DNA from: an uncultured Flavobacteriaceae bacterium
GTDB lineage: Bacteria; Bacteroidota; Bacteroidia; Flavobacteriales; Flavobacteriaceae
Length of the DNA stretch: 64,000 nt
Assembly: GCA_938017825.1 (NCBI GenBank)
Contig: CALIJE010000027.1
Span: 1-64,000, forward strand
Direction: 5' to 3'
Shown: piece after piece, positions 3,293 to 64,000 of the stretch
Position numbering within the stretch: the first letter of the stretch is position 1
Layout of the letters: each line of letters begins with the position of its first letter
The notes under the pieces: model-generated
The model's database searches: none
Told to the model about the DNA's origin: nothing
What the model saw: only the letters and a program-made list of their open reading frames with translations
Position numbers and translations under genes: made by a program

Positions 3293-4003
3293 TTAGGACA
3301 GGTTTTGAGCTTCTTTTTCCGTTGGCGGTGAGGCCACTTCATTGCCCACAATTTGTCCGTCTACCATGGTTAGTTTACGATCGGCAAGATCTGCCAGCAG
3401 CTCGTTATGAGTAACGATAACAAATGTCTGCCCGAACTTATCGCGCAGCTCAAAAAAAAGTTGATGTAAATTATCGGCACTATCCGAGTCTAAGTTACCA
3501 CTTGGTTCATCGGCAAAAATTACCGAAGGATTATTGATCAATGCACGTGCTACGGCGACGCGTTGCTGCTCACCTCCTGAAAGTTCACTTGGCTTATGAT
3601 GGTGACGCTCGGATAATCCCAGAAAATCCAATAACTCTTTTGCACGCGACTCGGCATCATCTTTAGGTGTTTTTCTAATGAAAGCCGGGATGCAAACATT
3701 CTCTAAGGCCGTAAATTCGGGTAACAATTGATGGAATTGAAAAATAAAACCAATATGCTCGTTTCTAAATTTGGCGAGCTCCTTGTCGCTTAGATTCGAT
3801 ACTTGAATCGAATTGATTACTAAGCTACTGTCTTGTGAATTCGAAGATCCATCCAAAGTACCTAAAATCTGAAGTAAGGTCGTTTTTCCTGCTCCTGACG
3901 CGCCGACGATCGAAACCACTTCTCCCTTTTTGATATGAAGGTCAACACCCTTTAAAACGGTTAAATCTCCATATTGCTTTCTGATATTGGTCGCTTTGAT
4001 CAT
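3293..4003 (-). CDS. lolD: ABC transporter ATP-binding protein, LolD type
   Basis: The 236-residue ATPase carries Walker [10 protein letters not shown], signature [15 protein letters not shown], Walker [13 protein letters not shown] and the switch His in IVTHNE. The sequence style is that of the MacB/LolD/FtsE group. LolD powers the LolCDE complex that releases lipoproteins from the inner membrane. No LolC/E permease lies next to it, so assignment to the Lol system rather than another MacB-like exporter rests on sequence only. It diverges from folE across a 176-nt gap. Confidence 0.85.
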
Positions 4004-56103: not shown

Positions 56104-57189
56104 TTAATACTCCTTGAGCAGCACAACACCTTTCTTTCCTTTGATCGAGATGCTACCCGGCTTCCCATTACCATATGTGGCCATGATTCTTCGTAGTTTC
56201 TTACCCTTGTCCAGCATTTTCGAATCAATATTTTGAAATGATTTAGGTAGGCGAACAAGACCTTGTTCAACTGTGGCTTCAAATTGATGCGAAAAATCGA
56301 CAATGTTGAAACTTAATTTCGATGATTCCTGCTCTATGGCAATATCCGCGCTTGGATCAACAATTTCGTCTACACGTAAATCCGCTATTCGCAGATTTAG
56401 GTCGATTCCTTTGATCAACCGTGAAATCTGAACGGTAGTGAATTTAAAATGCCCAAAGGCCGTGCCCACTTCAGCAAGGGTAACATCATCTTTATTCGAA
56501 TATATTTCGAGCGACTTCACGCTATTTAAGGCCATTTCAGATCCATTGCTATTGATTCGTAAATTTTTGGAGTCTTCCATATCCAATTCCCCGTTCTTAA
56601 GATCTAAACTGCCGTAGTTGATCGAATTGGCTCGTAGTTTTCCATATTTCATTACGATATCCGCCTTATTCAAATCATTATTGATCCAGAGATCACCATG
56701 TTCTATAGTGGCCTTTAATTGACCTGACCAATCTTCGATAATTACATCTCCAAACGTATTCATAACTTTTAGCTCTGCCTTTTTGGGCAGGTGAACGGTA
56801 TAATCTATCTGCACATTGCTACGATCAAAATCGGGGTGCACTTCATCAAAAAGTTTCGCAAAAAAGCTATGGTTCTTTTCTGCGATTTCATAACCGATAG
56901 AAACATAATTGTTGCTATTTTTAATCACGGGGCTAATGCGTTTGAGCAGATCTTTGGCATTCTCCTTTTTCCTATGATTGGCCGATATCACGATAGACAC
57001 GGAGACCTCCTCTTTATCCCAACCGAAAAGGTTAATGTTCCCATACTTGTTTTCCAACTGCAGCTTGCCAGAATTGGTCAAGGCGAAGTTTTCTGTTACC
57101 GTCTTAGATACGTTTTCTTGGGCCGTCGCATGCTGTCCTAGAATCAGCACTAGGGCCACCCATAGTAGTTTTTTACAAAGTGTATCCAT
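56104..57189 (-). CDS. DUF4097-like exported protein
   Basis: The 361-residue protein has a signal peptide (to about LGQHATAQ). A right-handed beta-helix-like region of repeating short strands follows (GKLQLENKYGNINLFGW, VMNTFGDVIIEDWSGQ), typical of the DUF4097/putative adhesin family. It overlaps the anti-sigma-like gene by 17 nt in another frame, so translation is coupled. The family often responds to envelope stress circuits, but the molecular function is unknown. Confidence 0.82.
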   Translation of the reverse strand: MDTLCKKLLWVALVLILGQHATAQENVSKTVTENFALTNSGKLQLENKYGNINLFGWDKEEVSVSIVISANHRKKENAKDLLKRISPVIKNSNNYVSIGYEIAEKNHSFFAKLFDEVHPDFDRSNVQIDYTVHLPKKAELKVMNTFGDVIIEDWSGQLKATIEHGDLWINNDLNKADIVMKYGKLRANSINYGSLDLKNGELDMEDSKNLRINSNGSEMALNSVKSLEIYSNKDDVTLAEVGTAFGHFKFTTVQISRLIKGIDLNLRIADLRVDEIVDPSADIAIEQESSKLSFNIVDFSHQFEATVEQGLVRLPKSFQNIDSKMLDKGKKLRRIMATYGNGKPGSISIKGKKGVVLLKEY

Positions 57190-57715
57190 AATTATCGTCT
57201 ATTATTTTAGAATCGTTAATCTGTTTCAATAGGTTTTCGATCAATTGTATGCGTTGCTTATAGTTGGCTACAATTGCCTCGAGTACTAGTTCATTGTCTA
57301 AGTTATTCTGCATTTCCAAACGTAATTGCGCATATTCGGCATCGAGCTCATCCATAAAGGACAAAAACTCAGACTTATCCGCTTCAGTTAGGTTAGGATT
57401 GTTCTGTACCAACTGCACTTGATAGGAGACCAATCCTTTGTAGTGCATATCTATGTCCAAGAGTTCTTTGGCAACATATTGGGTTCCTTCTGTCTCATGG
57501 CCCCCTAAAAGTTGGAGCCCTATAAAACCGCCAATGCCTAACAGTAGGAGAAGGGTAGCTGCAATTTTTGCCATGGGTCTTTTCCACAATGGAATTACCT
57601 TGGGCTGCGCCGGTTGCAATTCTTCTGAAATCTTTGCCCACATTTTGGCACGGTCTGCCTTGTGCTCATCGAATGCCGAAGCATTCTCCCGAATATGTTT
57701 TTCAAAGTTGTCCAT
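57173..57715 (-). CDS. Anti-sigma-like membrane protein
   Basis: The 180-residue protein has a cytoplasmic N-terminal part (about 1-48), one hydrophobic helix (about 49-68, MAKIAATLLLLLGIGGFIGL), and a periplasmic helical part rich in Asn, Gln and Leu. The topology and the TAATG overlap with the sigma gene suggest an anti-sigma factor, though no canonical zinc motif is seen. It is cotranscribed with the DUF4097-like gene. Confidence 0.82.
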   Translation of the reverse strand: MDNFEKHIRENASAFDEHKADRAKMWAKISEELQPAQPKVIPLWKRPMAKIAATLLLLLGIGGFIGLQLLGGHETEGTQYVAKELLDIDMHYKGLVSYQVQLVQNNPNLTEADKSEFLSFMDELDAEYAQLRLEMQNNLDNELVLEAIVANYKQRIQLIENLLKQINDSKIIDDNYGYTL

Positions 57716-58254
57716 TACAAGGTTTCTATAATTTGTACTAATTTTTTCTTTGCTCGATGATATTGCGATTTAGAGGTAGAGGTGCTAATGCCCAATACTT
57801 CCCCAATCTCAACATGGTCATACCCTTCTATAAGATAGAGGTTGATGATTTGTCGATAGCCTGCAGGAAGCTTGTTGATACCCTCCTTTACTTTTTTGAT
57901 ATCCACTGCCGCTGTTTCAACTTCAGTATCATCCTTTAAATGAAATTCATGCGCTGCTATTGGTACTACGGGAATTTCCTTTTTCTTTAAATAGTTGATG
58001 CTCTTATTGATGACAATGCGTTTTAACCAAGCCCCAAAAGTACTCTCGTAAGAAAAGCCATCCAGATTCTTAAAGGCCGCAACAAAACTATCTTGCACGA
58101 TATCCTCGGCATCTTCCTTGTTTCCCAACATACGCATGCCTACATTATACATAGCATCAACATAGAGTCCATACAACTCGTACTGTGAGCTGCTATGGCC
58201 TGTTTTGCACTTTTCTACGAGTGCGCTATGCGTAAAACGGATATCGGTTTCCAA
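57715..58254 (-). CDS. ECF RNA polymerase sigma factor
   Basis: The 179-residue protein has region 2 (about 20-90, GNKEDAEDIVQDSFVAAFKN) and region 4 (about 120-175, YDHVEIGEVLGISTSTSKSQYHRAKK) and no other domain, so it is an ECF-type factor. The start is a TTG (58254); an in-frame stop upstream excludes other starts. It heads the operon of anti-sigma-like and DUF4097-like genes and probably drives its own promoter. It is not shown to be the PorX partner SigP. Confidence 0.9.
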   Translation of the reverse strand: METDIRFTHSALVEKCKTGHSSSQYELYGLYVDAMYNVGMRMLGNKEDAEDIVQDSFVAAFKNLDGFSYESTFGAWLKRIVINKSINYLKKKEIPVVPIAAHEFHLKDDTEVETAAVDIKKVKEGINKLPAGYRQIINLYLIEGYDHVEIGEVLGISTSTSKSQYHRAKKKLVQIIETL

Positions 58255-59082: not shown

Positions 59083-60537
59083 ATGAATGTGAACGGTACA
59101 ATTTATGCGATCTACTCTTTAGAGGATAAAGACTTGGTTCTAAATCTTTTGAATCGTTTAAAGTCCTCTGATAAAGACTCCAATAACACCATTTGGGATG
59201 ATGACCCTATTAAATCAGGGCAAGCCTGGTCGCCAAAAGATGCAACACGACTGCAAAAAGCAGATGCCTTTTTTCTTTTTGCCAGCAATTCGTTTATGTA
59301 TTCCGAATTTATTCAGCAGAATGAATTTAAAATGATCATTGACCGCTACAAGGATGAAAACACCACCGTAATCCCAATACTGATCGACAATTGTCCCTGG
59401 GATACTGAGTTTAGTTCTGATGATTACAATTTCAGTTTTAAGGAACTACAGGTATTGCCAAAGAATAGGAAACCTATTAGCAGGTGGGATTCAAGAGATG
59501 ATGCGCTGAATCATATTGCGAAAAAACTAAAGAAGATAATTGCACCCGAAATTGAAAACGCTAGGGAACAAGATCTTGATAAAAAACAGGATTCGGATTC
59601 CATCGAACTTAAAAAGGAAGAACAAATAGCACTTGATTTTACTGAAGAAAAAGAGGATAAAACACAGCAAGTAGTCGATTCTGAATCCGAGAAGCGTTTA
59701 GCGGAGGAAATCCGTTTGAGGAAAGAGGCGGAGGCCAAGCGCAGTGCATTAGAGGAGAAAAAGCAAATAGAAAGGGTAAAAGCTGAACAAAAAGCTAAGG
59801 AATTGGCACAGATCAAGGCTAATGAAGAACAAAAATTGCATGAGGCCGCGAAAATCAACCAAAAACCGGAACATGAAGTCGAACCGATTACAACTCCCCC
59901 TGACCCAAAGGAAGTGCCTATTTCTGATGATTATGAAGAAGAAGAAAATGTATATCGGAACAACAATAGGCTTAAGAATAGGGCACTCATTGGTATTGCT
60001 GCCGCTCTGGCCGCATTAGCCATTTGGTTTTTTTTAGACGACAAGGCCCCTTCGAAAATATCGGCGACTGAAGCAACAAAGATTGAAAACGTATCTGGCG
60101 AGGAGGTTGAAAAAATTGATGCGCCAAAGGAAGTGCCACAACAACAAAAGGAAATTTTGCAAGAACTCGTTGTCGGCGACTCCTATAAGGGTGGAATCAT
60201 CTTTAAAATTGATGCCTCCGGAAAATCGGGAACACTTGCTTCCTATGATGATGTAGGACCCATGTCTTGGAGTGCGGCCATGAAAATACATGAGGAATTA
60301 GGAGAGGGTTGGCGTTTACCCAGTCTTGACGAATTAAGATTAATGCGCCAGACCATAGGGCAAGGAGCGACCAATGATGGGGAATTTTCAGACGGACTTT
60401 ATTGGAGTGCTACCGACTATGATGAATACCAAGCACGCGTAATGCGGTTTCGTGATGGAAATACTTCATACCATTATAACAAAGTTGCCGAGAATAGAAA
60501 ATTTCGAGTTCGCCCTATTCGTGACTTTACCCGCTAG
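59083..60537 (+). CDS. TIR-like / coiled-coil / TM / DUF1566 protein
   Basis: This 484-residue protein combines parts seldom seen together. Residues about 5-155 are TIR-like: AIYSLEDKD start, ADAFFLFASNSFMYSEFIQQNEF with Glu81 where TIR NADases carry their catalytic Glu, and PISRWDSRDDALNHIAKKL at the end. Residues about 200-265 are a highly charged coiled coil (EKRLAEEIRLRKEAEAKR). One membrane helix lies near 297-317. Residues about 363-483 resemble DUF1566 (GGIIFKIDASGKSG, GWRLPSLDELRLM, YWSATDYDEYQ). The predicted layout is TIR inside and DUF1566 outside. No defence or partner gene is adjacent. A sensor-effector role is inference. Confidence 0.82.
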   Translation: MNVNGTIYAIYSLEDKDLVLNLLNRLKSSDKDSNNTIWDDDPIKSGQAWSPKDATRLQKADAFFLFASNSFMYSEFIQQNEFKMIIDRYKDENTTVIPILIDNCPWDTEFSSDDYNFSFKELQVLPKNRKPISRWDSRDDALNHIAKKLKKIIAPEIENAREQDLDKKQDSDSIELKKEEQIALDFTEEKEDKTQQVVDSESEKRLAEEIRLRKEAEAKRSALEEKKQIERVKAEQKAKELAQIKANEEQKLHEAAKINQKPEHEVEPITTPPDPKEVPISDDYEEEENVYRNNNRLKNRALIGIAAALAALAIWFFLDDKAPSKISATEATKIENVSGEEVEKIDAPKEVPQQQKEILQELVVGDSYKGGIIFKIDASGKSGTLASYDDVGPMSWSAAMKIHEELGEGWRLPSLDELRLMRQTIGQGATNDGEFSDGLYWSATDYDEYQARVMRFRDGNTSYHYNKVAENRKFRVRPIRDFTR

Positions 60538-63058: not shown

Positions 63059-63865
63059 TCAACAACCCATCAATCCGAACGAAATTACAAGCTCTTGATC
63101 TACTTTTTCACCTTTGGCATTTTCAGCAGGCTTCCATTGGCCTGGAAGCTTAGAGATCAGCTCGATCATTCTGTCATCCAAACTTGGATAGCCCGAATGA
63201 TTGTCTAGGCGTACATGTTCAAGAATCCCACTTTTGGTTACCGTAAAGTATAGTTTAGCAGGTCTCATTTTGTCCGGTTCTACATTGATCAAGGCTTCCT
63301 TAGTGTTTTCTTTCAAATAGGATTTGAGTTGCTTAAAACCTTTGCTATACTGAGCTTGTGTTTCAGGTACGATGGTAAGATGAGGATTGAAAGTGCCATT
63401 CTCGATTTTGCCAGTGGTCTTGTTTGTTTTTTCAAATTTTGCCTGTATTGAAAAATTGGTAGAGTAATCAAACGAACGTAGCATTTGTAATTGTGCTTTT
63501 GTAAATTCCTCATCAAATCCTATTTCTCGAATAGCTGACTGCGCCTCATTTTTGATGACGATAATGTTAACCGATTTCAAGGACCCTATTTCTTGAATTT
63601 CTTTAGAACTGAAAAAATCATGTATCGAAGTTGCCTCAACTAGTTCGGTCTTCTTTATACCGCTGAATCTTGGGCCTATATCATATATGAAATCGGCGAA
63701 GATTTTTTTGTCTGGTTGCTCAACATTATGTGATACCAAAGGGCCGTCCGCTAGAATAACGTTATCCTGCCCCAATGTGCTTGAATCGTTCCTATTGGCA
63801 AGGGCAAAGAATGTTAGGCCTATGGTGGCTAGTAGTGTGCAAAAAATATAAAGTAGCTTTCTCAT
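63059..63865 (-). CDS. Exported protein with TonB-C-like end
   Basis: The 268-residue protein has a signal peptide or anchor (residues 4-24). Its last about 80 residues (MRPAKLYFTVTKSGILEHVRLDNHSGYPSLDDRMIEL, then WKPAENAKGEKVDQELVISF) resemble the TonB C-terminal fold. The middle part has no recognised motif. It lacks the Pro-rich spacer of classic TonB, so energy transduction is doubtful. Upstream lie phased TGTAAAT repeats and a TAGTTTTG box. Confidence 0.8.
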   Translation of the reverse strand: MRKLLYIFCTLLATIGLTFFALANRNDSSTLGQDNVILADGPLVSHNVEQPDKKIFADFIYDIGPRFSGIKKTELVEATSIHDFFSSKEIQEIGSLKSVNIIVIKNEAQSAIREIGFDEEFTKAQLQMLRSFDYSTNFSIQAKFEKTNKTTGKIENGTFNPHLTIVPETQAQYSKGFKQLKSYLKENTKEALINVEPDKMRPAKLYFTVTKSGILEHVRLDNHSGYPSLDDRMIELISKLPGQWKPAENAKGEKVDQELVISFGLMGC

Positions 63866-63884: not shown

Positions 63885-63961
63885 AATTTACATCAAAACT
63901 AACGCAGCAGTTGGCTGCAGTGTGTCTATGGAGTGTAAATTGATGTAAATTTTGTGTAAAT
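63885..63961 (-). promoter_or_regulatory. Promoter with phased TGTAAAT repeats
   Basis: TGTAAAT occurs at 63934, 63944 and 63955 (10- and 11-nt steps), with its inverse ATTTACA at 63886. The outer pair extends to a perfect 12-bp inverted repeat (63885-63896 / 63940-63951). The -7 box TAGTTTTG (63901-63894, minus) lies between, placing the direct repeats at about -46 to -73 of the TonB-C-like gene. Confidence 0.55.
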
Positions 63962-64000
63962 CATTTCTAAATGTCCAAGATTCAGATAGTTTTGCAGCAT

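What the first reader, a model, noticed from the sequence alone, without database searches (positions are those of the whole stretch)
63885..63961. Helically phased TGTAAAT repeats upstream of a TonB-C-like gene
Three direct copies 10-11 bp apart sit at about -46 to -73, the usual place for an activator such as a response regulator, and a fourth inverted copy lies by the start region, making a perfect 12-bp inverted repeat across 67 bp. No regulator gene is visible nearby.
Basis: partly seen in the sequence, partly recalled or inferred. Interest (0 to 1): 0.5.

Follow-up and report, generated by a model that had tools for sequence, protein, structure and literature searches.

The report
Two-way switch for membrane-anchored gene regulator
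The three evenly spaced repeats are a highly conserved DNA switch lying between two genes that point away from each other, one for an exported protein and one (just past the window's edge) for a membrane-anchored DNA-binding regulator that very probably binds the repeats; the family is widespread in Bacteroidota and I found no published description of it.

Summary
In detail: TGTAAAT occurs at 63934, 63944 and 63955 (+). "No regulator nearby" is wrong, an artefact of the window edge. A regulator gene starts at 63999 on the + strand and runs to 64901 of the contig. It encodes 300 aa: periplasmic domain, TM helix, C-terminal OmpR/PhoB-type winged helix.

The array TGTAAA-N4-TGTAAA-N5-TGTAAA is its likely operator, shared by both divergent promoters. 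In 27 homologous loci it starts 64-66 bp from the regulator ATG (21) or one helical turn further (6). The regulator's -7 box sits at -12 in 23 of 27, so its mRNA is predicted leaderless. The partner's -7 box lies 31-32 bp from the array in 21 of 25. A DNA-only scan of 400 family genomes gave 17 exact arrays, all between this regulator (one a pseudogene) and the TonB_C-like gene. Unlinked copies in other genomes sit before the same kinds of exported-protein genes. Operator spacing follows the regulator clade (10/11, 11/11, 12/9).

The fourth inverted copy is in 1 of 25 loci: incidental. Most likely this is an autoactivated, membrane-tethered one-component switch, working like ToxR with the domain order reversed. 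Binding, direction of control and signal are inferred.

The parts
63934..63960 (+). Operator: three direct half-sites TGTAAA-N4-TGTAAA-N5-TGTAAA (starts 63934, 63944, 63955)
   Evidence: Exact array unique in own genome; conserved in 26 of 27 subfamily-A loci; 17 of 17 exact sites in 400 genomes lie at this locus type
63987..63994 (+). Predicted -7 promoter box TAGTTTTG of the regulator gene, at -12 to -5 from its ATG (predicted leaderless mRNA)
   Evidence: Same position in 23 of 27 loci; matches T-12 A-11 T-8 T-7 T-6 G-5 of F. johnsoniae promoters (PMC6847099)
63999..64000 (+). First two bases of the regulator gene (contig C27:63999-64901, L013:2000-2902): 300 aa, periplasmic domain + TM helix + C-terminal Trans_reg_C winged helix
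   Evidence: Pfam PF00486 1e-19; AlphaFold2 model of an orthologue, mean pLDDT 85.7; TM segment at 174-192
63894..63901 (-). Predicted -7 promoter box TAGTTTTG of the partner gene, 32 bp from the operator; predicted start site about 63889
   Evidence: Box at 31-32 bp in 21 of 25 linked loci and in 16 of 17 loci found by DNA pattern alone
63059..63865 (-). Partner gene: 268-aa exported or membrane-anchored protein with a TonB_C-like C-terminal part
   Evidence: PF03544 0.0004, below curated cut-off; conserved next to the regulator
63886..63892 (-). Fourth, inverted TGTAAAT copy; incidental, not conserved
   Evidence: Present in 1 of 25 linked loci, ours only

Best explanation
The repeats are the operator of a membrane-tethered one-component regulator encoded divergently from 63999. 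Its periplasmic N-terminal domain senses something in the envelope, and a single transmembrane helix carries the signal to the C-terminal OmpR/PhoB-type winged helix. Winged helices load head-to-tail on the three TGTAAA half-sites, on one face of the DNA. From there they recruit RNA polymerase to both flanking promoters: the regulator's own, predicted leaderless promoter (positive autoregulation) and that of the exported TonB_C-like partner. Shown here: anatomy, conservation, unique placement, fixed geometry on both sides, unlinked target sites in other genomes, and operator spacing that follows the regulator clade. Inferred: direct binding, activation rather than repression, the signal, and any feedback from partner to regulator.
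For: Regulator gene with winged helix directly divergent. Array conserved in 26 of 27 loci against 0 of 540 shuffles. Array 64-66 bp from the regulator ATG in 21 of 27, the other 6 shifted by one helical turn. -7 box at -12 in 23 of 27; partner -7 box at 31-32 bp in 21 of 25, chance about 1.7% per site. 17 of 17 exact arrays in 400 genomes flank this regulator, one of them a pseudogene. Unlinked arrays precede the same families of exported-protein genes in G042, G060, G074 and G075. Operator spacing follows the winged-helix clade, 9 changes against 43 shuffled. Half-site sequence and spacing resemble those bound by KdpE (PMC3264566) and the tox-box (PMC8517210).
Against: No binding, expression or start-site data. 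The array reads in opposite directions relative to the two promoters, so activation of both is not a given. In some subfamily-A members the third half-site is weak (L058, L065). One genome (G005) keeps operator and partner although the regulator is broken.
Confidence: 0.75

Rival explanations
1. Same regulator and operator, but it represses one or both promoters (autorepression, released by a signal).
For: Divergent regulator/target pairs often use autorepression (established knowledge). The array reads in opposite orientations towards the two promoters.
Against: The array ends upstream of -38 on both sides and does not cover either -7 box or start site. The regulator -7 box carries G at -10 in 23 of 27, a base almost absent there in F. 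johnsoniae promoters (PMC6847099), which fits a weak, activator-dependent promoter. Shifts are by a whole helical turn, as activators need.
Confidence: 0.15
2. The site belongs to an unlinked two-component response regulator (for example RprY- or PhoB-like) and not to the divergent gene.
For: The organism has another OmpR-family winged-helix protein (G000:C159:17371-17694), and the winged helix is nearest to RprY among curated models.
Against: Exact arrays were found only beside this regulator, in 17 of 17 genomes. Array spacing class follows this regulator's clade. Where regulator and partner are unlinked (G042), both keep the array.
Confidence: 0.06
3. Chance repeats in AT-rich intergenic DNA.
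For: Single TGTAAAT words are common (21 in the 64-kb window, both strands).
Against: Shuffles, other stretches of the same loci, whole-genome uniqueness, and conservation across Bacteroidota families.
Confidence: 0.01

Closest known systems
ToxR/CadC-like membrane-bound one-component regulators (with ToxS-type companions)
   Same: Single-pass membrane protein joining a periplasmic sensor domain to an OmpR-type winged helix, no phosphorylation domain; AT-rich direct-repeat operator (tox-box TNAAA-N5-TNAAA, PMC8517210); exported protein encoded next door.
   Different: Domain order is reversed: periplasmic domain N-terminal, winged helix C-terminal. Partner is divergent and variable. Different phylum, and no sequence relation outside the winged helix was found.
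OmpR/PhoB-family response regulators (KdpE, PhoB, RprY)
   Same: Winged-helix fold; 6-bp direct half-sites about one helical turn apart (KdpE TTTATA/TTTACA with 5-bp spacer, PMC3264566).
   Different: No receiver domain and no kinase; membrane-anchored; three half-sites.
CpxR box GTAAA-N5-GTAAA (from memory, not tested)
   Same: Half-site sequence and spacing look alike.
   Different: CpxR is a cytoplasmic response regulator; two half-sites; different phylum.

Membership tests
OmpR/PhoB winged-helix superfamily | Trans_reg_C winged-helix domain | tested here: met
   PF00486 70.8 bits against cut-off 26.2; fold matches to PhoB, KdpE, CadC and ToxR domains
OmpR/PhoB winged-helix superfamily | Tandem direct half-sites about one helical turn apart | tested here: met
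   10/11 bp spacing, conserved; binding itself not tested
Two-component response regulator | Receiver domain with phospho-acceptor aspartate | tested here: not met
   Pfam finds only Trans_reg_C in all 14 members scanned
ToxR-like receptors | Membrane-anchored winged helix with periplasmic sensor domain | tested here: met
   TM segment between the domains in 77 of 81 members; model
ToxR-like receptors | N-terminal cytoplasmic winged helix, C-terminal periplasmic domain | tested here: not met
   Winged helix is C-terminal, residues 223-296 of 300
ToxR-like receptors | Extra C-terminal strand completing a five-stranded N-terminal sheet (PMC8517210) | not tested
   Not examined in the model
TonB (energy transducer) | TonB C-terminal domain above the curated cut-off | tested here: not met
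   21.2 bits against 24.6; 10 of 22 subfamily-A partners match at E up to 0.01; fold resemblance weak, best E 0.027
Leaderless mRNA | Start site at or next to the start codon | not testable with these tools
   Predicted from the -7 box at -12 in 23 of 27 loci; needs start-site mapping

The most novel reading that the evidence does not exclude
A phylum-wide, undescribed signalling module: a reversed-order membrane winged-helix regulator with a dedicated operator whose repeat spacing co-evolved with the regulator (three classes), whose own mRNA is leaderless with a fixed operator/-7/ATG geometry, and in which the exported partner gene is swapped (TonB_C-like, Reg_prop propeller, YceI, TPR or TPR/S41) while the switch stays. 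The partner may act as the sensor or feedback protein for the regulator's periplasmic domain.
Probability: 0.45. Interest if true: 0.68.

Novelty: new variant of a known kind. Interest (0 to 1): 0.55.

Why it matters
Few transcription switches of Bacteroidota have been defined at the level of operator and promoter (my own judgement). Here one site gives regulator, operator, both predicted start sites and a tiny regulon, so each is directly testable in a cultured relative such as Ulvibacterium marinum. The three spacing classes (10/11, 11/11, 12/9) with matching recognition helices (GRTLDVF, GRSLDT[YF], GRSLDMF) are a natural data set for how winged-helix proteins read half-site spacing. The predicted leaderless regulator mRNA is unusual in a group where about 5.5% of mapped mRNAs are leaderless (F. 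psychrophilum, PMC9723704).

Tried and rejected
Chance origin (rejected). Fourth inverted copy and 12-bp inverted repeat as a looping element (rejected as a conserved part: 1 of 25; a further TTGATGTAAATT occurs at 3461). A large regulon in the own genome (none found: the exact array is unique; the relaxed two-repeat pattern gives two further sites against two for the control). A classical response regulator as the cognate protein (disfavoured). Filing the regulator as ToxR-like (domain order not met). Literature searches for this family found nothing that describes it; that library holds open-licence papers only. Fold search of the partner gave only weak resemblance to TonB C-terminal domains. 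The fold list of the regulator was filled by winged helices, so fold relatives of the periplasmic domain were not seen.

Full report
OBSERVATION. The three TGTAAAT copies are at 63934, 63944 and 63955 (+), 10 and 11 bp apart, and an inverted copy is at 63886-63892. In the organism's own draft genome (3.32 Mb, 87% complete) the exact array TGTAAA-N4-TGTAAA-N5-TGTAAA occurs only here. All other sites have 3 mismatches and are near the number given by the reversed-pattern control (17 against 11).

WHAT THE WINDOW CUT OFF. The contig continues to 68468. A + strand gene starts at ATG 63999, two bases before the window ends, and runs to 64901 (L013:2000-2902). Its 300-aa product has a C-terminal Trans_reg_C domain (residues 223-296, 1e-19), whose nearest curated model is RprY. 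A hydrophobic segment lies at 174-192, followed by KRKKEER. The AlphaFold2 model of the Ulvibacterium marinum orthologue (mean pLDDT 85.7, pTM 0.48, so relative domain placement is unsure) shows an N-terminal helix, a compact alpha/beta domain (about 45-140), a TM helix (165-193) and a winged helix (200-296). The last matches PhoB-pho box, KdpE-DNA, CadC and ToxR-DNA structures. So the locus is a divergent pair: regulator to the right, TonB_C-like exported protein to the left.

CONSERVATION. I fetched 80 named relatives of the regulator from GTDB genomes. They fall into three groups by recognition helix and operator. A (this locus; 27 loci; GRTLDVFISKLR): TGTAAA, spacing 10/11, or 10/12 in some. 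B (27; GRSLDT[YF]ISKLR): TGTCAA-N5-TGTAAA-N5-TGTCAA, often with a fourth TGTAAA, spacing 11/11. C (mostly GRSLDMFISKLR): TGTAAA, spacing 12/9. A three-unit score of 14 or more was reached in 26 of 27 A, 25 of 27 B and 22 of 26 C promoters; shuffles reached it in 0 of 540 for A and under 1% for B and C. On a tree of the winged helix alone, operator class needs 9 changes against 43 for shuffled labels, and the A loci form one side of a branch with support 100/99. Clustering on a tree is expected of any inherited trait; the stronger hint of matching is G014. There the regulator is class B, and an orthologue of our partner, at an unlinked place, carries an 11/11 array with its -7 box at 32 bp. That is a single case.

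GEOMETRY. In group A the array starts at -64 to -66 from the regulator ATG in 21 of 27 loci, and at -76/-77, one helical turn further, in the other 6. TAnnTTTG lies at exactly -12 from the ATG in 23 of 27. In F. johnsoniae the -7 element is T-12 A-11 .. T-8 T-7 T-6 G-5 with 4-5 nt to the start site (PMC6847099), so transcription should begin at or next to the ATG: a leaderless mRNA, a class that makes up 5.5% of mapped mRNAs in F. psychrophilum (PMC9723704). The base at -10 is G in 23 of 27, although G is almost never seen there in F. johnsoniae. On the other side, TAnnTTT[GA] reading towards the partner lies 31-32 bp from the array in 21 of 25 loci; the chance level for a match of 5 of 6 letters is about 1.7% per site. 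Between array and boxes conservation is much lower.

DNA-FIRST TEST. Searching only the exact 27-bp pattern in 400 genomes of the family gave 17 sites in 17 genomes (reversed pattern: 2). All 17 lie between this regulator and a TonB_C-like gene. An ATG lies 65 or 66 bp from the start of the array in all, and a partner -7 box is at 31/32 bp in 16. In one genome (G005) the regulator is broken, its own -7 box is gone, and operator and partner side persist.

TRANS SITES. In G042 regulator and TonB_C-like partners are about 50 kb apart and each keeps its own exact array. A third site with one mismatch precedes a lipoprotein-like gene (YGGWYCPDN family) which in L068, L071 and L073 is the linked partner. 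Further unlinked sites precede the same family (G074), a second TonB_C-like gene (G060) and a YceI-like gene by eye (G075). All five, and G014, keep the 31-32 bp spacing to a -7-like box. In group B, unlinked sites precede YceI genes and a conserved exported protein of about 410 aa. Linked partners differ by group: TonB_C-like, Reg_prop, TPR or TPR/S41 in A; YceI in 15 of 25 in B. The switch stays and the exported target changes.

MECHANISM. Best reading: a periplasmic signal changes the membrane-anchored regulator; its winged helices occupy the three half-sites head-to-tail, as OmpR/PhoB-family proteins do (KdpE: TTTATA/TTTACA, 6-bp repeats with a 5-bp spacer; PMC3264566), and help RNA polymerase at both promoters. 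Binding, activation, the signal and any feedback by the partner are inferred. Repression is the main rival, disfavoured by operator position and by the one-turn shift.

KNOWN AND NEW. It works like ToxR/CadC but has the reverse domain order, and unlike response regulators it has no receiver domain. I found no description of the family in the open-licence literature searched, which is not proof of novelty. I file it as a new variant of a known kind.

Noticed in passing
G005:C1 around 592448 (L018:4514-4794): A subfamily-A regulator broken by a stop and a frameshift, with its own -7 box lost, while operator and partner promoter persist: a natural loss to compare with intact relatives.
   Followed up: partly
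L068, L071, L073 partners; G042:C24:26190; G074:C25:20582: An uncharacterised lipoprotein-like family with the motif YGGWYCPDN, repeatedly found behind this operator, linked or unlinked.
   Followed up: partly
L190 and L202 (group B sites): A conserved exported protein of about 410 aa (LDCNxCDxTYIKQNLGNVQFVRDQ) behind unlinked TGTCAA/TGTAAA arrays in two genomes.
   Followed up: no
window 57715-58254 and 56104-57715, - strand: Sigma-70-family (ECF-type) factor gene followed by two genes that look like its operon, possibly an anti-sigma factor and a secreted protein.
   Followed up: no
window 59083-60537, + strand: 484-aa protein with a TIR-like N-terminus (by eye), a TM segment and a C-terminal domain.
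   Followed up: no
L013:2955-4031 (contig C27:64954-66030, outside the window): Gene for a protein with an adenylate/guanylate cyclase domain, convergent with the regulator gene.
   Followed up: no
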